Origin: Alkalicoccus chagannorensis DSM 18086
GTDB taxonomy: Bacteria > Bacillota > Bacilli > Bacillales > Salisediminibacteriaceae
DNA length: 32,850 nucleotides
NCBI RefSeq assembly: GCF_000429725.1
Contig: NZ_AUCK01000034.1
Coordinates: 1 to 32,850, forward strand
Reading direction: 5' to 3'
The notes below the pieces were generated by a model. The model made no database searches. It was given only the letters and a program-made list of their open reading frames with translations, and was not told the DNA's origin. A program made the position numbers and the translations under genes. Shown piece by piece: positions 3,560 through 32,634 of this stretch (the first letter of the stretch is position 1; every line of letters begins with the position of its first letter).

Positions 3560-3781
3560 CCGGCGCCAGAGACGGCATCAGCGCCGAATGCCCGCTCGGC
3601 CTTCGTGAGTGTCCGCTGGCTGCTGCCGAACGTCCGAGCCGCCCTACGGAGTGTCCGCCCAGCTCCTGAAGCGCCGCTTTCCCTTTCCTAACGACTGCTC
3701 CAGATCGTCCAGCGACCGCCCGCAGCTGCGGAGTGTCCGAGCCGGCGGTGTGAACGTCCGAGCCGCGCCACGACCACATAC
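3560..3781 (+). repeat. Degenerate 21-bp tandem repeat array, locus 1
   Basis: About ten units follow one another at a strict 21-bp spacing. The conserved part is roughly GAGTGTCCGCCC or GAACGTCCGAGCC, and the other nine or ten bases vary. Units can be read starting at 3574 (GAATGCCCGC) and then every 21 bases to about 3780. Read on the minus strand, the units give heptapeptides around Leu-Gly-His-Ser or Gly-Gly-Arg. The same unit recurs at 9.1-9.6 kb and 24.7-24.9 kb. Confidence 0.8.
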
Positions 3782-6235: not shown

Positions 6236-6417
6236 TCCTGCCCCGCTCCGTCAATTTTAGTAGGTTGGTTGCATCTGTCAGCTGAAGTGCTTTTGTCCAC
6301 CAGGTCACCCTGCTGTTTTGGCTCTTCATTGCGGCTGTGACAGGCAGCCGGGAGGCATCCGCCGATAACTCGATAACCTCCTCCTCGTCAACTGCCTACT
6401 CCGGCAGTTCAGGCGCT
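6236..6417 (-). ncRNA. glmS ribozyme/riboswitch (glucosamine-6-phosphate-activated)
   Basis: Self-cleaving RNA in the 5' leader of glmS, which cuts its own mRNA when glucosamine-6-phosphate is bound and so gives feedback control. Conserved core segments read on the minus strand are AAGCGCCTGAACTG at the cleavage site, GTTGACGAGG, GGTTATCGAG, CGGCGGATGCCTCC and the closing GGGGCAGGAA. By analogy with known glmS ribozymes, cleavage falls between A at 6417 and G at 6416. About 45 bases separate the ribozyme from the glmS start. In that linker CCCTTGTTCAAGGG forms a hairpin overlapping the GGGAGG ribosome binding site. The exact 3' edge is approximate. Confidence 0.95.
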
Positions 6418-6472
6418 TTGGGTTTTCCTTTTTATGGACCGCGGTCCTCCTTCCACACATAAGAATAGAATC

Positions 6473-7207: not shown

Positions 7208-7353
7208 AAATATAAGAATGAAGACGTTCTCATACAGGGTGACGGCGGCTCTGTCAGCTGCTCGGGAAGCATGAAGAACCTATGCTTCCCTCTAAAGAAC
7301 CAGCAGCGACGACGCACGCCGTTCCGAACAAAAGGCGCTGCGCGCTTTTTTGC
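7208..7353 (-). repeat. ~140-bp structured dispersed repeat, full copy 1
   Basis: Full-length minus-strand copy lying directly downstream of the cytidine deaminase-like gene. It has the head hairpin (AAAAGCGC, then GCGCCTTTT), the TTCGGAACGGCGTGCG segment, the central hairpin GGGAAGCAT...ATGCTTCCC with a nine-base loop, the GAGCAGCTG segment, and the GCCGCCGTCACCCTGTATGA tail. See the copies at 16421, 18719 and 32490. Confidence 0.85.
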
Positions 7354-9074: not shown

Positions 9075-9262
9075 GTGTGACCGCCTGGCACCGATGAGTG
9101 ACTGCTCTGCCACACCGAACGTCCGCTGCGTCCGGCCGAGTGACCGCCCAGCGCCGGTATGACCGCTTGTCCGCTTCTAGCGACTGCCCGCTGCCGCCTT
9201 GCGACCGCCCACCGCCGCTCTGCGTCCGAGCCGGCGCCGCGAGTGACCGCCCAGCACCAAAA
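9075..9262 (+). repeat. Degenerate 21-bp tandem repeat array, locus 2, first array
   Basis: About nine units with a consensus near GAGTGACCGCCC plus nine variable bases. Spacing is 21 bp throughout except for one 19-bp step at about 9138-9157. Unit starts include 9075, 9096, 9117 and 9138. The unit matches those of locus 1 and locus 3. Confidence 0.8.
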
Positions 9263-9300
9263 GAATACCACGCCGAAAAACCTCCAGCCCACCATCCACC

Positions 9301-9343
9301 TCGTTTCCGCGGCTGCCCCGGCAGCCGTAGACCAAAAGGGCTT
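9301..9343 (+). repeat. Conserved hairpin core between the 21-bp arrays, copy 2
   Basis: Matches the 44-bp block at 3809-3852: GCGGCTGC, four bases, GCAGCCGTAG, then ACCAAAAGGGCTT. Read on the minus strand, both copies give Lys-Pro-Phe-Trp-x-Thr-Ala-Ala-x-Ala-Ala-Ala-Glu-Thr. The four loop bases and several third-codon positions differ. Confidence 0.75.
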
Positions 9344-9389
9344 GGGTGACTGGAGGGATTTTGGTTTTTTCCATCTGCTGTTCTTCGTC

Positions 9390-9578
9390 GAATGACCGAG
9401 CCGCCTTTCGCTGAGTCCGCGGAGCGCTGTCGTACGTCTGCTGTGGTTCGTCGAGCGTCCGCCCAGCACCCGAATGGCCGCTGAGCCTGGCGTAGCGACT
9501 GCTTTGACCGACCGTGCGTCCACCCACGGCTGCGCTGCGTCCGAGCGGCCTGCCGATGCGTCTGCTCCTTCACGTAAC
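9390..9578 (+). repeat. Degenerate 21-bp tandem repeat array, locus 2, second array
   Basis: Nine consecutive units of exactly 21 bp (189 bp in all), for example GAATGACCGAGCC, GAGCGTCCGCCC and GCGTCCGAGCGG at their starts. Each unit keeps a G(A/C)(G/A)(T/C)G(A/T)CCG-like core; the rest is variable. Confidence 0.8.
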
Positions 9579-16026: not shown

Positions 16027-16528
16027 CTTGCCCTCATTTTATTTTATCACTTCGATTGTGAAAAAACACCATGACACCAGATAACATATTTACTATTTTT
16101 TGGTTTGTTCAGAATAGGCCATCCGAGGACCAGCAGCGCAGAGCGCCTTTTGACTGGATCGGCGGACGAACGGTCAGATGCCGTTTTTCGTCTTGGCAGG
16201 CGTGGCTCAACCCGCGGAACGGACCGTCACAAAACGGCCGCCGCGTGGCGTGTTTCGGTCGTCCACCGGCTCCATTTCAAGCCGGCGGCTCCTTTTTTCT
16301 TCAGGGCGTCCCACCTGCGTCCAGTACCCGCCCGTTTCAGGCAGGCGGGCGTCTTCTTTTTTCCGTAAAGCGACCCGCTTTCCGGCGCTGCCATCTTCGG
16401 CAGCGTACCTCCTGCCTGCGAGAACAAAAGTGCGGAGAGCTTTTGTTCGGAACGGCGTGCGGCGTCACTGCAGGTTCTTTGAGGGAAGCATCGGTTCTTA
16501 TGCTTCCCGAGCAGCTGACTTATACGAT
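16027..16528. other. Repeat-filled intergenic region between sigW and the tRNA cluster
   Basis: No gene is supported. The overlapping plus-strand open frames translate repeat DNA that occurs again, inverted, at 24.3-24.6 kb. From left to right the region holds a head-only fragment of the ~140-bp repeat (about 16125-16175, with CGCAGAGCGCCTTTTGA), the ~220-bp repeat, and a nearly full copy of the ~140-bp repeat. Confidence 0.6.
16176..16392 (+). repeat. ~220-bp dispersed repeat with twin terminator-like hairpins, copy 1
   Basis: Matches the reverse complement of 24346-24570 over its whole length. Landmarks are GGCAGGCGTGGCTCAA, CGGTCGTCCACCGGCTCCAT, TTCAAGCCGGCGGCTCC followed by TTTTTTC, AGGGCGTCCCACCTGCG, then CCCGCCCG...GGCGGGCG with a second T run, and AAGCGACCCGCTTTCCGG. 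Both hairpins have the form of rho-independent terminators. Confidence 0.85.
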
Positions 16529-16532
16529 GAAA
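16421..16532 (+). repeat. ~140-bp structured dispersed repeat, copy 2
   Basis: Head hairpin ACAAAAG...CTTTTGT, the GGAACGGCGTGCGG segment, and central hairpin GGGAAGCAT...ATGCTTCCC with an eight-base loop. Then GAGCAGCTGACTTATACGAT, where the tail is shortened. It runs into the terminator of the tRNA cluster. Confidence 0.8.
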
Positions 16533-16578: not shown

Positions 16579-16654
16579 TGGTGGAGCCTAGCGGGATCGA
16601 ACCGCTGACCTCCTGCGTGCAAAGCAGGCGCTCTCCCAGCTGAGCTAAGGCCCC
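16579..16654 (-). tRNA. tRNA-Ala (anticodon TGC)
   Basis: A 76-nt cloverleaf with encoded CCA. The acceptor starts GGGGCCT, the anticodon stem-loop is CCTGC TTTGCAC GCAGG, and the T arm contains GGTTCGATCCCGC. Last tRNA of the cluster before the terminator. Confidence 0.97.
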
Positions 16655-16673
16655 TTTCGCGGGATATGTAACT

Positions 16674-16749
16674 TGGTGAGCCATGGAGGATTCGAACCTC
16701 CGACCCTCTGATTAAAAGTCAGATGCTCTGCCAGCTGAGCTAATGGCTC
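16674..16749 (-). tRNA. tRNA-Lys (anticodon TTT)
   Basis: A 76-nt cloverleaf with encoded CCA. The acceptor GAGCCAT pairs with ATGGCTC; the anticodon stem-loop is TCTGA CTTTTAA TCAGA; the T loop is TTCGAAT. Confidence 0.97.
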
Positions 16750-16758
16750 CCGTCTGAA

Positions 16759-16958
16759 TTGGCGATAAGCGGCGAATCTCTTCGGCTCCTTCGCTTCGTT
16801 CCTTTTGTCACGTACTCCTGTACGCTCCAACGTCTCTCTGCTCGGTTTCTCGACCTTCTTGCTTCTCCCCAATCAGATGCATGGGGCTACGTGCAGTCGA
16901 CCGGGCGGCGATAAGCGGCGAATCTCTTCGGCTTCTTCGCTTCGTTCCTTTTGTCACG
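16759..16958 (-). repeat. Repeated tRNA-spacer element, copy A
   Basis: The ~200-bp spacer between tRNA-Gln and tRNA-Lys is closely similar to the spacer at 18071-18264. Each copy has two internal ~50-bp direct repeats, here at 16761-16812 and 16907-16958. They start GGCGATAAGCGGCGAATCTC and end CGTTCCTTTTGTCACG. Between them lie the small hairpin CGTACTCCTGTACG and the CCCAATCAGATGCATGG segment. It would be transcribed as part of the tRNA precursor. Confidence 0.85.
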
Positions 16959-16979
16959 CTGATCCATCCGTATATGAAA

Positions 16980-17054
16980 TGGCAGGGCTAGCAGGATTCG
17001 AACCTGCGAGTCACGGAATCAAAATCCGATGCCTTACCGCTTGGCTATAGCCCT
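16980..17054 (-). tRNA. tRNA-Gln (anticodon TTG)
   Basis: A 75-nt cloverleaf with encoded CCA. The acceptor AGGGCTA pairs with TAGCCCT, the anticodon stem-loop is CGGAT TTTGAT TCCG, and the D arm has GCCAAGCGG as usual for Gln. Confidence 0.96.
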
Positions 17055-17061
17055 GCGTGGA

Positions 17062-17137
<76 letters not shown>

Positions 17138-17138
17138 A

Positions 17139-17213
17139 TGGTGACCCGTACGGGATTCGAACCCGTGTTACCGCCGTGAAAGGGCGGTGTCTTAACCACT
17201 TGACCAACGGGCC
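17139..17213 (-). tRNA. tRNA-Glu (anticodon TTC)
   Basis: A 75-nt cloverleaf with encoded CCA, and the first gene of its cluster. The anticodon stem-loop is CCGCC CTTTCAC GGCGG; the T arm contains GGGTTCGAATCCC. Confidence 0.97.
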
Positions 17214-17247
17214 TGAAATTTGTCGGCGTAGCTGCTGACAAGAATGA

Positions 17248-17276
17248 ATATTATCAAACCCGGCCCCTTTTGGCAA
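17248..17276 (-). promoter_or_regulatory. Sigma-A promoter of the tRNA-Glu to tRNA-Ala cluster
   Basis: On the minus strand TTGCCA (17271-17276), 17 bp, then TAATAT (17248-17253), about 30 bases upstream of the tRNA-Glu 5' end. Confidence 0.7.
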
Positions 17277-17395
17277 GACTTTTAAACCACTTTTTTCGGA
17301 AAAGAAAAAGGTCGGAATTTTCACTTCTTCGAAAGCGTTTTCCCCTCTGTGTTATGATGGAAATCACACCAATCTTTGATAGGAGGAATCCCCGT

Positions 17396-17857
17396 ATGTG
17401 GACACCCGAGACGGCATTCGCTGCTCTCCGCGACGTATATGATGAGGAACTGATGATCGAGGAAAAACGAAAAGTCATGCTGGATCTGCAGCGTCAGCTG
17501 GAAGAGCGGCTGGACGACATGGCCCTCCGTCATCTTATGCCTCCGGAATTGGACGAGCAGCTCTCCCGCTACAAGATATCCACCTTCATGTCCGGCGACA
17601 ATATTTTTCAGTCCATGCGCCATGTTTTTTTAATTGCGCGGGGGGAACCTCAAGGATCCCGTCAGGAAACAGAGGCTCACTTGCAGCGAATCTACCGGAC
17701 GCTTTTCCAGCCGGCTGCACGACGCAACCCGGTTATTCCGGACAGCTTCTGGCGCACCCCGCTTGGGACCGCCTGTCTTGTTGCAGACAAAGGAATCGAA
17801 GCCGCCTACCCCATTCTGGACGAAGTACGCGCGGTTCAAACAGAAGAGAAGCTGTAA
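17396..17857 (+). CDS. Hypothetical protein, embedded between tRNA clusters
   Basis: A 153-residue soluble protein that I do not recognise. The first half (to about residue 65) is charged and probably helical (DVYDEELMIEEKRKVMLDLQ). The second half contains RGEPQGSRQETEAHLQRIYR and the segment VIPDSFWRTPLGTACLVADK. No signal peptide, membrane helix or catalytic motif is seen. The ATG at 17396 follows AGGAGG with a nine-base spacer, and TGTTATGAT at 17350-17358 is an extended -10 candidate. It is the only plus-strand gene in a block of minus-strand RNA genes. A DNA-modification or tRNA-linked role cannot be inferred from position alone. Confidence 0.75.
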   Translation: MWTPETAFAALRDVYDEELMIEEKRKVMLDLQRQLEERLDDMALRHLMPPELDEQLSRYKISTFMSGDNIFQSMRHVFLIARGEPQGSRQETEAHLQRIYRTLFQPAARRNPVIPDSFWRTPLGTACLVADKGIEAAYPILDEVRAVQTEEKL

Positions 17858-17888
17858 AAAAAGGCAGGGTCCCAAAAGGGTCCCTGCC
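17857..17888 (-). terminator. Terminator of the 5S-tRNA-Asn-tRNA-Thr unit
   Basis: GGCAGGGACCC, TTTT, GGGTCCCTGCC, then seven T on the minus strand. On the plus strand it can also close the upstream coding gene as a stem without a T run. Confidence 0.9.
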
Positions 17889-17903
17889 TGTAACTGTTTA
17901 AAA

Positions 17904-17979
17904 TGGAGCTTCCTACCGGACTCGAACCGGTGACCTCATCCTTACCATGGATGCGCTCTACCAACTGAGCTAAGGAAGC
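17904..17979 (-). tRNA. tRNA-Thr (anticodon GGT)
   Basis: A 76-nt cloverleaf with encoded CCA. The acceptor GCTTCCT pairs with AGGAAGC; the anticodon stem-loop is CATCC ATGGTAA GGATG. It is the second Thr isoacceptor in the window. Confidence 0.96.
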
Positions 17980-17984
17980 GGAAA

Positions 17985-18059
17985 TGGCTCCACCGGTAGG
18001 ATTCGAACCTACGACCCATCGGTTAACAGCCGATTGCTCTACCACTGAGCTACGGTGGA
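17985..18059 (-). tRNA. tRNA-Asn (anticodon GTT)
   Basis: A 75-nt cloverleaf with encoded CCA. The acceptor TCCACCG pairs with CGGTGGA; the anticodon stem-loop is ATCGG CTGTTAA CCGAT. Confidence 0.97.
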
Positions 18060-18070
18060 ATAATCTCTGA

Positions 18071-18264
18071 TTGGCGATAAGCATCGAATCTCTTCGGCTC
18101 CTTCGCCTCGTTCCTTTTGTCACGTACCTTTGTACGCTCCAACGTCTCTCTGCTCGGTTTCTCGACCTTCTCGCTTCTCCCCAATCAGATGCATGGAGCA
18201 GCGTGCAGTCGACCGGGCGGCGATCAGCATCGAATCTCTTCGGCTCCTTCGCCTCGTTCCTTTT
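18071..18264 (-). repeat. Repeated tRNA-spacer element, copy B
   Basis: Spacer between the 5S rRNA and tRNA-Asn, closely similar to copy A. Its two internal direct repeats (18073-18124 and 18219-18266) both carry AGCATCGAATC and TTCGCCTCG, where both repeats of copy A carry AGCGGCGAATC and TTCGCTTCG. The small hairpin here is CGTACCTTTGTACG. Confidence 0.85.
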
Positions 18265-18285
18265 CCTATCTACATAAAAAAGTTG

Positions 18286-18402
<117 letters not shown>

Positions 18403-18457: not shown

Positions 18458-18718
18458 GGGATGTTTCAAATTTTTCTTCTTTTCATTTTCCAGCATGATC
18501 TGAGTGCTGACACTGTTTTTGCTGTGGGAACGAGGCGAACCAAGCCACCAGCATTGGTGTAAAGGAAAACCACTGTCTGCCTTTAAGACCTCCAGCCTTC
18601 ATATACATTTAATTTCCTGCTCTCACTAAGTCAGTATGGTATGCTGAAAGCAGATTTCACAGTAGATGAAAAAAACATTATCCGGGCAGGCACAACATTC
18701 GACTGGCCTGATTTGTGC
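18458..18718. other. Intergenic sequence without a recognised feature
   Basis: No gene, rRNA remnant or clear repeat is seen between the 5S promoter and the dispersed repeat copy. Confidence 0.4.
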
Positions 18719-18857
18719 ACAAAAGCGCAAAGCGCCTTTTGGTCGGAACGGCATGCGGAAGCGCTGCAAGCTTTCTGAGGGAAGAAAACGTTCTTTGTTT
18801 CTTCCCGAGCAGCGCATGGAGCCGCCGTCACACTGTATGAAAACTTATACATTCCTA
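18719..18857 (+). repeat. ~140-bp structured dispersed repeat, full copy 3
   Basis: Full copy. The head hairpin is CAAAAGCGC, AAA, GCGCCTTTTG. GGTCGGAACGGCATGCGG follows. The central hairpin pairs GGGAAGAAA with TTTCTTCCC. Then come GAGCAGCGCATGGAG and the tail CCGTCACACTGTATGAAAAC with ATACATTCCTAT. It ends about 25 bp upstream of the following small gene, close to its ribosome binding site. Confidence 0.85.
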
Positions 18858-18882
18858 TCATGCGAAGAAATGGAGGCCCTTC

Positions 18883-19116
18883 ATGCTAAAAATCAAAATC
18901 CACCCGGTTCTGATTGCCGCTCTATGGATCGGGAGTATCACCTGGCTTTACTATGCTTACCAGAGCTTTACTGCAGGAAACACCGGACAGACGCTGTTCT
19001 TCCTCGGCCTGGCTGCCTTCATGGCCTGGCTTGCAGCCACAGGCATGGCAGGAAACAAAGACGAAAAAACATCCTCAGGGAAAGACGAAGACACAGCAGA
19101 CGACCGAACTAGATAG
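18883..19116 (+). CDS. Small two-segment membrane protein, unidentified
   Basis: A 77-residue protein with two likely membrane helices (VLIAALWIGSITWLYYAY and LFFLGLAAFMAWLAATGMA) and a charged tail rich in Asp, Glu and Lys (KDEKTSSGKDEDTADDRTR). No family recognised. The ATG at 18883 follows GGAGG with a six-base spacer. Convergent with kbaA and closed by a terminator. In B. subtilis, as I recall, pdaB (ybaN) and an rRNA operon lie at this position. Confidence 0.7.
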   Translation: MLKIKIHPVLIAALWIGSITWLYYAYQSFTAGNTGQTLFFLGLAAFMAWLAATGMAGNKDEKTSSGKDEDTADDRTR

Positions 19117-24345: not shown

Positions 24346-24570
24346 GGTGGCAGCGGCGGAAAGCGGGTCGCTTCACGGAAAAAAGGGGACGCCCGCCTCC
24401 CGGAAGCGGGCGGGTACCAGGCGCAGGCGGGACGCCCTGAAGAAAAAAGGAGCCACCGGCTTGAAATGGAGCCGGTGGACGACCGGAACACGCCGCTCGG
24501 CAGCCATTTTGAGACGGTCCACTCCGTGATTTGAGCCACCCCTGCCAACAACACAAACGGCAACTGACCG
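24346..24570 (-). repeat. ~220-bp dispersed repeat with twin terminator-like hairpins, copy 2
   Basis: Inverted relative to copy 1 at 16176-16392. Read on the minus strand it has GTGGCTCAA, CGGTCGTCCACCGGCTCCAT, an AGCCGGTGGCTCC stem with TTTTTTC, AGGGCGTCCCGCCTGCG, then CGCCCGC...GCGGGCG with CCCCTTTTTCC, and AAGCGACCCGCTTTCC. Several differences between the copies lie in loops or form new pairs in the stems. Confidence 0.85.
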
Positions 24571-24633
24571 GCCGTATGCCACGCTGGAAAAAGAGCAGGG
24601 TATGCGGCTTTTCGGCGCGCCCTCGCCCGATGC

Positions 24634-24679: not shown

Positions 24680-24732
24680 ATGGAGAGGATCGGCTGAAGG
24701 TTGTTGATCCTGTGTCCGTCGATTTAGTCCGG

Positions 24733-24899
24733 AGCGGTCACTCAGGTCGCTCGAGCGGTCACTCAGCCGCCAGGAGCGGTCTGACGGCGGACGAAAGCGG
24801 TCGCTCAGAGAAGAAAAGCAGTCATTCACCTCCTCAGCGGTCATTCAGAGGACCGCAGCGGTCGTTCCGCTCATCAAAACGGTCACTCAGTCGGAGCCG
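24733..24899 (-). repeat. Degenerate 21-bp tandem repeat array, locus 3
   Basis: Eight units with the consensus AGCGGTCACTCAG on the plus strand, which is CTGAGTGACCGCT on the minus strand, plus eight or nine variable bases. Spacing is 21 bp except for one 19-bp step (24818 to 24837). On the minus strand the units read as Leu-Ser-Asp-Arg heptads, but the 2-bp step changes frame in the middle. Orientation is opposite to loci 1 and 2. Confidence 0.85.
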
Positions 24900-27845: not shown

Positions 27846-28101
27846 CGCCCTGCCCCCCTGTTGTCTTGGATGCGTTCAGTTTATCGCCCCGCTGCTCGGA
27901 CGGCATTGGGCATTGCGCACAATCAAAACAGGCAAAAACACACAATACGCACAATGAAATCAACGCACCGTGGATGGTTTCATCCAAACAAGAGGAAGAC
28001 CCTGTGGCTGCCTCTTCAACAAAAGACCTTTTTCCTTCGTCTCCGAACAGCGGACGAATCCGCCGTCTCCTTTCTATGAAAACTTTTACATTCCTAACCA
28101 G
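27846..28101. other. Leader and promoter region of allB
   Basis: Holds the candidate operator repeats at 27916-27955 (separate entry) and a degenerate copy of the ~140-bp repeat (about 28017-28096, with CAACAAAAG, CGCCGTCTCC and TATGAAAACTTTTACATTCCT in parts). No clear sigma-A promoter can be fixed. No gene is seen. Confidence 0.4.
27916..27955 (-). promoter_or_regulatory. Candidate regulator binding repeats upstream of allB
   Basis: On the minus strand ATTGTGCG occurs at 27948-27955 and 27916-27923, with a related ATTGTGTG at 27939-27946 in between. Spacing is 9 and 23 bp. They lie 70-110 bp upstream of the allB start, where an activator such as PucR could bind. Not matched to a known PucR box. 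Confidence 0.35.
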
Positions 28102-32486: not shown

Positions 32487-32489
32487 CAG

Positions 32490-32634
32490 AACAAAAGCGC
32501 AAAGCGCCTTTTGATCGGAACGGCGTGCGGAAGCGCTGCAAGCCTTTTGAGGGAAGAAGACGTTTTTGTTTCTTCCCGTGCAGCGCATGAAGCCGCCGTA
32601 CCCCTGTACGAAAACGTATACTCCCTCTTTCTAC
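32490..32634 (+). repeat. ~140-bp structured dispersed repeat, full copy 4
   Basis: Full copy starting four bases after the pucG stop codon. The head is CAAAAGCGC, AAA, GCGCCTTTTG, the same as copy 3. ATCGGAACGGCGTGCGGAAG and CGCTGCAAGCC follow. The central hairpin pairs GGGAAGAA-AC with GTTTCTTCCC with one bulged base. The tail is CCGCCGTACCCCTGTACG and AAAACGTATACTCCC. Confidence 0.85.

What the first reader, a model, noticed from the sequence alone, without database searches (positions are those of the whole stretch)
18719..18857. Dispersed ~140-bp repeat with a covarying hairpin: candidate undescribed structured RNA or mobile element
Four long copies (7208-7353 minus, 16421-16532, 18719-18857, 32490-32634) share the order head hairpin, GGAACGGC(G/A)TGCGG, central hairpin, GAGCAGC, tail CCGTCACCCTGTATGA. 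The central stem is GGGAAGCAT/ATGCTTCCC in two copies and GGGAAGAA(A)/(T)TTCTTCCC in the other two. Two base pairs change on both sides together while the loop keeps TTCTT. That is the pattern of selection on a folded RNA or on a foldback DNA element. All copies are intergenic. I know no Rfam family that fits; Bacillaceae-1 has a different loop consensus.
Basis: partly seen in the sequence, partly recalled or inferred. Interest (0 to 1): 0.75.

Follow-up and report, generated by a model that had tools for sequence, protein, structure and literature searches.

The report
Short mobile element behind gene terminators
A structured piece of DNA about 145 bases long is present at least 150 times in one bacterial genome, mostly lying just behind the "stop" signals of genes and almost always on one strand relative to DNA replication, which makes it an unusual kind of tiny mobile element whose helper enzyme is still unknown.

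Summary
The repeat is real and part of a family with at least 150 significant end-to-end model matches in this 3.5 Mb genome (all 150 scored). No Rfam family matches. Its fold is conserved: 141 double-change cells against 46 in shuffles and at most 71 in slid controls. Neither strand is favoured as RNA. It is mobile: paralogous empty sites show insertion without target duplication. Copies lie behind intrinsic terminators: 84 of 150 by a strict test, against 0-3 of 150 at control sides. Their strand follows replication (141 of 150; 27 of 28 at bidirectional hairpins). Each copy ends in its own terminator-like hairpin and is itself a target; 25 abutting pairs. This targeting equals that of group IIC introns, which are present here (3 of 3 behind terminators), but the element lacks intron hallmarks and its target bases differ. 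Best reading: a non-autonomous element inserted into single-stranded lagging-strand template. The enzyme is unresolved: HUH transposase, group IIC machinery or another. The same tail next to A-tracts marks other repeats in some related genomes.

The parts
18717..18862 (+). On the minus strand its 5' end is CATGATAGGAATG and its 3' end is the head hairpin plus GTGC.
   Evidence: R2 166.4 bits; BLAST
18721..18740 (+). Head hairpin AAAAGCGC/GCGC(C)TTTT with one bulged base; on the minus strand it reads like an intrinsic terminator
   Evidence: helix 1, double changes at all 8 pairs
18748..18828 (+). Central compound hairpin: ACGGC/GCCGT, GC/GC, GCGCTGC/GCAGCGC, GGGAAGAAA/TTTCTTCCC
   Evidence: helices 2-5
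18834..18851 (+). Tail hairpin TGTATGA/TTATACA
   Evidence: helix 6, 83% of cells paired, double changes at 6 of 7 pairs
18852..18862 (+). Terminal tail TTCCTATCATG; the end that abuts the terminator in most copies, though not in this one
7208..7353 (-). Whole copy of the CAT/ATG subfamily; its tail abuts AAAAAAA plus a GC hairpin (terminator of the opposite strand)
   Evidence: R2 145 bits
16422..16522 (+). Copy without tail
   Evidence: R2 78 bits; nhmmer model positions 1-103 of 145
32489..32633 (+). Whole copy with diverged tail
   Evidence: R2 153.7 bits
10731..10815 (+). Internal-deletion derivative that keeps head and tail; next to an A-tract
   Evidence: R2 44.5 bits; (I3)
28017..28101 (+). 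Weak short copy (tail half)
   Evidence: R2 15.8 bits; nhmmer 36 bits
24982..25036 (+). Tail-half fragment next to A-tract and hairpin
   Evidence: nhmmer 24.8 bits
21468..21531 (+). Fragment followed by an A-tract and a GC hairpin
   Evidence: nhmmer 19.5 bits
4235..4269 (+). Tail fragment
   Evidence: nhmmer 20.1 bits

Best explanation
It is a short non-autonomous mobile element. Its 3' end is its own terminator-like hairpin plus, in most copies, TTTTGTTC. Insertion makes no target duplication and uses the terminator hairpin exposed on the lagging-strand template at the fork. Because the element carries such a hairpin at its end, each copy is a new target, which builds tandem arrays. Shown: mobility, target, spacing, strand, self-targeting. 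Inferred: that the target is single-stranded DNA, and that an enzyme acts in trans. My leading single candidate for the enzyme is an HUH (Y1, IS200/IS605-type) transposase recognising the two subterminal hairpins (about 0.4); group IIC intron machinery about 0.3; something else about 0.3. The confidence below is for the class-level mechanism, not for the enzyme.
For: 150 of 150 scored candidates significant, best other copies 97-99% identical. Paralogous empty sites: C21:25729 and C1:170664 against two C19 places (exact on the left, ambiguous by one T/A on the right), C7:97209 against C19 and C20 places (exact on both sides), no duplication. Strict terminator at the tail end in 84 of 150, controls 0, 2 and 3 of 150. 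75 of 150 insertions lie 7-9 nt past the last G-C pair, mode 8; T at -3 in 99 of the 100 sites with a hairpin below -9 kcal/mol at 4-12 nt, 76 of 77 non-tandem. Strand: 141 of 150, 137 of 150 by local skew, against 274 of 436 ORFs; 27 of 28 bidirectional hairpins. 25 abutting pairs, gap 0 in 20; the higher-scoring (younger) copy lies on the host-terminator side in 11, on the own-terminator side in 11, undecided 3. Double changes occur in both terminal hairpins. Copies cut at the tail are not in excess (14 no-tail, 27 no-head of 199 local matches), which argues against simple reverse transcription from the 3' end. IS200-like elements can show the same target taste: 4 of 4 in G049, by eye.
Against: No autonomous partner with matching ends was seen, but I looked only at the resident Y1 and RT loci (R2 finds nothing in L040 or L162), not through the genome. 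The only Y1 gene here belongs to an IS with other ends. I know of no HUH element that needs a hairpin in the target. No pairing rule between element 5' end and target emerged (96 tests, lowest permutation p 0.004). Leading strand was inferred from GC skew of held DNA, and the C1 switch at 220 kb was set by me after seeing the data. The number of pairs with double changes (24) is matched by slid controls (13-26).
Confidence: 0.78

Rival explanations
1. A SINE-like retroelement: the element's RNA (minus strand, ended by its own terminator) is inserted in trans by the group IIC intron ribonucleoprotein and its reverse transcriptase, borrowing the intron's terminator-hairpin and lagging-strand targeting.
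For: Same target, orientation and strand as class C introns (PMC8919778 passages) and similar spacing (5-10 nt in 8 introns of relatives). The only RVT_1 match in the genome is a group II intron RT closest to GsI-IIC RT; its intron shows three 5' ends, all behind terminators. Introns of relatives lie behind terminators in 8 of 9 loci and 20 of 20 by eye. Genomes with the tail pattern carry such an RT in 9 of 10 cases against 8 of 25 without it, Fisher 0.0027; species are not independent.
Against: No GTGYG start, no domain V, no Rfam hit. Resident intron targets read TTCGTG, TTTCGTC, TTTTTCTC (3 sites) and lack the T at -3 found in 99 of 100 element sites. Without a ribozyme core the joining step has no known catalyst. 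No excess of tail-cut copies.
Confidence: 0.3
2. IS200/IS605-type element (PATE-like) moved by a Y1 TnpA as single-stranded DNA.
For: Hairpins with double changes near both ends, no target duplication, lagging-strand template bias as in IS608 (PMC6006769, abstract in the listing). Y1 genes occur in this genome and in all five genomes with several tail places. G049 IS200-like copies lie behind terminators in 4 of 4 by eye; the resident IS lies behind one too (by eye).
Against: Y1 genes occur in 26 of 35 family genomes, so presence says little. The target has no fixed tetranucleotide: -1 and -2 vary. IS200-like copies in G021 (1 of 6), G045 (0 of 3) and G002 (0 of 1) lie mostly elsewhere (the four G015 copies were not resolved). 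Ends and hairpins differ from the resident IS.
Confidence: 0.4
3. Functional 3'-end RNA element (for example mRNA-stabilising or terminating) kept behind terminators by selection rather than placed there by insertion preference.
For: Conserved fold, terminator-proximal position; bcr repeats of B. cereus are often parts of UTRs (PMC3446304 passages).
Against: 97-99% identical copies at unrelated loci, empty paralogous sites, tandem arrays, and a 27 of 28 strand choice at bidirectional hairpins. G-U and A-C mismatches balanced apart from one consensus G-U pair.
Confidence: 0.07
4. Selection, not targeting: insertion is random, but only copies behind terminators survive.
For: Spaces behind terminators are harmless places (inference; no call).
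Against: Half of the insertions lie within 7-9 nt, T at -3 is near invariant and the strand choice at symmetric hairpins is 27 of 28. Selection for harmlessness does not predict these.
Confidence: 0.05

Closest known systems
Group IIC (bacterial class C) introns, e.g. GsI-IIC
   Same: Insertion immediately behind intrinsic terminators, 5' end at the T-tract, lagging-strand template
   Different: About 145 bp and non-coding (even the resident intron copy without ORF is about 0.6 kb), no GTGYG end, no domain V, no RT, different target bases from the resident intron
PATEs and other non-autonomous IS200/IS605 derivatives (features recalled)
   Same: Hairpins near both ends, no target duplication, lagging-strand bias, non-coding
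   Different: No cognate TnpA with matching ends seen; no fixed target tetranucleotide; target has a hairpin
bcr1-bcr3 repeats of the Bacillus cereus group
   Same: Short intergenic repeats in many copies, mobile, lineage-specific; a T-rich TTTAT motif (PMC6542083 passages)
   Different: Sequence not available to compare here; no terminator or strand rule in the passages I saw
REP/BIME with RAYT
   Same: Palindromic extragenic repeats, possible Y1 enzyme
   Different: About 145 bp and composite; the resident Y1 protein fits the IS200 model (147.5 bits) and not the REP model (24.2 bits, cut-off 80)

Membership tests
Group II intron | Domain V / intron core | tested here: not met
   No match at gathering score in the window for this repeat; at E up to 10 on 18600-18950 only CRISPR-DR30 at E 0.88; the resident intron does match RF00029
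Group II intron | GTGYG 5' end | tested here: not met
   5' end on the inserted strand is NNNNATAGGAATG; introns of relatives and of this genome start GTGYG
Group II intron | Insertion behind terminators on lagging-strand template (class C) | tested here: met
IS200/IS605-derived (PATE) | No target-site duplication | tested here: met
   empty sites
IS200/IS605-derived (PATE) | Subterminal hairpins at both ends | tested here: met
   helices 1 and 6
IS200/IS605-derived (PATE) | Fixed short target sequence at the left end | tested here: not met
   -1 and -2 variable, only -3 is T in 99 of 100
IS200/IS605-derived (PATE) | Ends shared with a TnpA-bearing element | tested here: not met
   single Y1 locus L040 has other ends and no R2 match; other strains not testable
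MITE of a DDE transposon | Terminal inverted repeats and target-site duplication | tested here: not met
   GAAC...TATCATG ends, no duplication
REP/BIME | RAYT-type transposase | tested here: not met
   the only Y1 protein scores 24.2 bits against a REP model cut-off of 80
bcr repeats | Sequence identity to bcr1-bcr18 | not testable with these tools
   consensus sequences not held
Structured cis-RNA | Strand-specific G-U tolerance | tested here: inconclusive
   168 G-U against 169 A-C cells without one consensus G-U pair; 283 against 169 with it

The most novel reading that the evidence does not exclude
Bacteria have a SINE-like class: tiny non-coding elements that reach the terminator and lagging-strand target of group IIC introns by using the intron's ribonucleoprotein in trans. 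Related genomes carry their own element bodies behind one common 5' motif (TAAGAATGTATAA on the inserted strand), and each element supplies the next target with its own terminator.
Probability: 0.25. Interest if true: 0.88.

Novelty: new variant of a known kind. Interest (0 to 1): 0.62.

Why it matters
Small interspersed repeats are common in bacteria and their movers are often unknown. This family gives a measurable rule (hairpin, T-tract, mostly 7-9 nt, one strand) that predicts insertion sites and ties a non-coding repeat to replication forks and terminators. If the mover is a group IIC intron, it would be a bacterial counterpart of SINE and LINE parasitism; if it is an HUH enzyme, it would show hairpin-directed target choice for that class. 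Either way it explains where such repeats accumulate and gives a test for other unexplained repeats.

Tried and rejected
Rfam families, including Bacillaceae-1: no hit to the repeat. DNA pattern in genome contigs and viral contigs: none. BLAST of the young copy in 39 related genomes: none. Model R1 was built with helices shifted by one column through my error and never used; R2 replaced it. The covariance model hits G006 once (L070, E 1.1e-11, credible) and G004 twice (best E 5.8e-5; a longer different repeat, not claimed as members). Guide-to-target pairing: nothing survives 96 tests. A test of Y1 presence did not separate the rivals. A viral-contig search with a neighbouring protein gave nothing. 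Paper searches for a described terminator-targeted short repeat, or for its motifs, showed none in their listings; the library is open-access only and I saw listings, not all the papers.

Weaknesses of my own tests: the terminator finder is home-made, and its unoccupied sites (454 of 869 on the leading-coding strand) include false positives and come from DNA chosen around copies. The covariation alignment A3 is fitted to the model; on it the count of pairs with double changes (24) is no higher than in slid controls (13-26), while cells (141 against 34-71) and score (0.115 against 0.021-0.059) are; on A2 the pair count does not beat shuffles (4 against 3.3) but the cell count does (13 against 5.1). 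End-to-end model matches include at least one copy that really lacks its tail (16422). The RT association treats related species as independent. Single pattern hits in G008 and G011 look like ribosome-binding sites; the reversed pattern also hits once among 35 genomes. One search listed only GTG sites with five or more T in the 14 bases before. Positions behind terminators were judged by eye.

Full report
WHAT IS THERE. A covariance model from 14 copies (R2) finds it at 166 bits together with 32489-32633, 7208-7353 (minus) and 16422 onward, plus five shortened or weak matches in the window, the weakest perhaps chance. In the whole genome 150 of 150 candidates scored are significant, from 174 down to 78 bits; since all scored ones passed, 150 is a floor, although the end-to-end matches include at least one copy (16422) that lacks its tail. 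By local matching, 156 of 199 matches in held DNA span both ends. In six small contigs not chosen for copies there are 2 matches in 53.8 kb. BLAST alone gives 57 places, the best at 97-99% identity over about 145 bp. The four-copy description needs two corrections: the 16421 copy has no tail, and the loop is not always TTCTT.

FOLD. A head hairpin (AAAAGCGC...GCGC-C-TTTT, one bulged base), a long central compound hairpin and a weak tail hairpin are predicted for the + strand, and much the same for the - strand. On 143 distinct copies there are 141 double-change cells against 45.9 (sd 5.4) in shuffles and 34-71 in slid controls; 90% of cells pair against 34-58% in slid controls. The number of pairs with a double change, 24 of 38, beats shuffles (12.7) but not slid controls (13-26). 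That alignment was fitted to the model and leans towards it; the 14-copy MAFFT alignment gives 13 double-change cells against 5.1. A prediction on an untrimmed MAFFT alignment of 22 copies recovered only the central stem, 6 pairs, 2 of them covarying. Apart from one pair that is G-U by consensus, G-U and A-C cells are equal, 168 and 169 (283 and 169 with it). The fold is therefore conserved in the lineages that spread, without a sign of which strand, or whether RNA or DNA, is the folded form. No Rfam family matches.

IT MOVES. Paralogous repeats in the same genome supply empty sites. C21:25729 and C1:170664 are filled versions of two C19 places; the left join is exact and the right one ambiguous by one T/A. 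C7:97209 is a filled version of C19 and C20 places; there the flanks read ...GTCT|CGAAA... in the empty site and ...CTCT|GAAC...CATG|CGAAA... in the filled one. The left boundary is GAAC, the right boundary TATCATG or TATACTT; there is no target duplication.

WHERE IT GOES. The right end commonly abuts 1-4 bases, an A-tract and a GC hairpin, which is an intrinsic terminator of the opposite strand. With a strict home-made test this holds for 84 of 150 copies, against 0 of 150 for the same side on the other strand and 2 and 3 of 150 for the left side. Measured on the inserted strand, 75 of 150 insertions lie 7-9 nt behind the last G-C pair, mode 8. Of the 100 sites with a good hairpin at 4-12 nt, 99 have T at -3, while -1 is free. 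Among the four long window copies only the one at 7208 passes the strict test, and the 66 copies that fail include young ones.

WHICH STRAND. Strands are uniform along many contigs (13 of 13 on C2, 11 of 11 on C13, 8 of 8 on C7 and on C17). Taking the G-rich strand as leading, the inserted strand equals the coding strand of leading-strand genes, that is the lagging-strand template, in 141 of 150 (with a switch on C1 set by me at 220 kb); local skew alone gives 137 of 150. ORFs of 150 codons or more in the same DNA are 274 of 436. Where a hairpin has T-tracts on both sides, so that both strands offer a terminator, the copy sits on the predicted side in 27 of 28. This separates replication-coupled insertion from a mere echo of gene direction.

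SELF-TARGETING. On the inserted strand the element ends in its own hairpin and, mostly, TTTTGTTC. In 25 abutting pairs (gap 0 in 20, 1 in 4, 2 in 1) the junction is tail to head. By score the younger copy is on the host-terminator side in 11, on the own-terminator side in 11, undecided in 3 (53 rows copied by hand from the 145). Every insertion keeps the old target open and adds a new one.

WHO MOVES IT. The genome has one RVT_1 match, a group II intron RT, closest in the Protein Data Bank to GsI-IIC RT. Its intron shows three 5' ends, one belonging to a copy of about 0.6 kb without room for the ORF, all behind terminators. Class C introns are described as inserting just behind intrinsic terminators on the lagging-strand template (PMC8919778 passages; PMC4424553 passages, for terminators), and introns of related genomes do so here in 8 of 9 loci and 20 of 20 by eye. 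The element shares this rule but has no intron start, no domain V and no RT, and the three resident intron targets lack the T at -3. The genome also has one Y1 transposase, in an IS with TTAC/TCAA ends (this reading rests on IS608 as I recall it), itself 8 nt behind a terminator by eye. IS200-like copies of one relative sit behind terminators in 4 of 4, others rarely do (1 of 6, 0 of 3, 0 of 1; four in G015 unresolved). HUH elements of this family target the lagging-strand template and recognise subterminal structures (PMC6006769, abstract in the listing), which fits the two end hairpins and the lack of a ribozyme. I put HUH slightly ahead (0.4), group IIC machinery next (0.3) and leave 0.3 for something else.

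HOW FAR IT REACHES. Relatives lack this sequence family by BLAST (0 of 39 other genomes); the covariance model finds a credible divergent copy in one of seven other congeners and doubtful ones in another. The terminal tail next to an A-tract (TATACATTCYTA N3-8 AAAAA) occurs at 49 places here and 24 in congener G002 (overlapping rows merged by hand), none in six other congeners, none in the reversed control of those eight genomes. In G002 the body of the element is different and longer. In the family 10 of 35 genomes match, the reversed control 1 of 35. The one place read in each of G043, G045 and G048 lies before a terminator hairpin; those in G008 and G011 look like chance. Genomes with the pattern have a group II RT in 9 of 10 cases, those without in 8 of 25 (Fisher 0.0027); for the five genomes with several places 5 of 5 against 12 of 30 (0.019). 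Species are not independent, and Y1 genes are also in all five.

NOVELTY. Terminator-seeking, lagging-strand insertion is known for class C introns, and small non-coding repeats are known (bcr, REP, PATE). I saw no description of a small non-intron element with this target rule in the listings (open-access papers only). I rate it a new variant of a known kind. The nearest named relatives by the window's GlmM are Salipaludibacillus and Evansella (78-79% identity among the 80 loci kept; very near genomes may be left out there), so the host is probably a Bacillales species near them.

Noticed in passing
6273-6428 (-): glmS ribozyme upstream of glmS (Rfam RF00234, 110.7 bits)
   Followed up: no
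3583-3746, 9116-9550, 24729-24893: Families of degenerate short direct repeats (GTCCGAGC..., AGCGGTCACTCAG... with 21-base spacing) at several places
   Followed up: no
16161-16393 and 24348-24580: A 233-bp inverted repeat pair, 86% complementary: a second repeat family
   Followed up: no
16582-18402 (-): Seven tRNA matches and a 5S rRNA, with no 16S or 23S match in the window, and a 195-bp duplication at 92% (16758-16952, 18070-18264)
   Followed up: no
L165:957-1573: Copy of the resident group IIC intron of about 0.6 kb, without room for the ORF, behind a terminator
   Followed up: partly
L232-L235: IS200-like copies in relative G049 behind intrinsic terminators in 4 of 4, by eye
   Followed up: partly
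L071:1501-1585 and L072:1501-1585: Two nearly identical structured repeats in G004 with weak similarity to the model (best E 5.8e-5 per genome); a different, longer repeat
   Followed up: no
L172-L190 and L166: G002 carries a longer composite repeat with the same tail next to terminators, in part in tandem
   Followed up: partly
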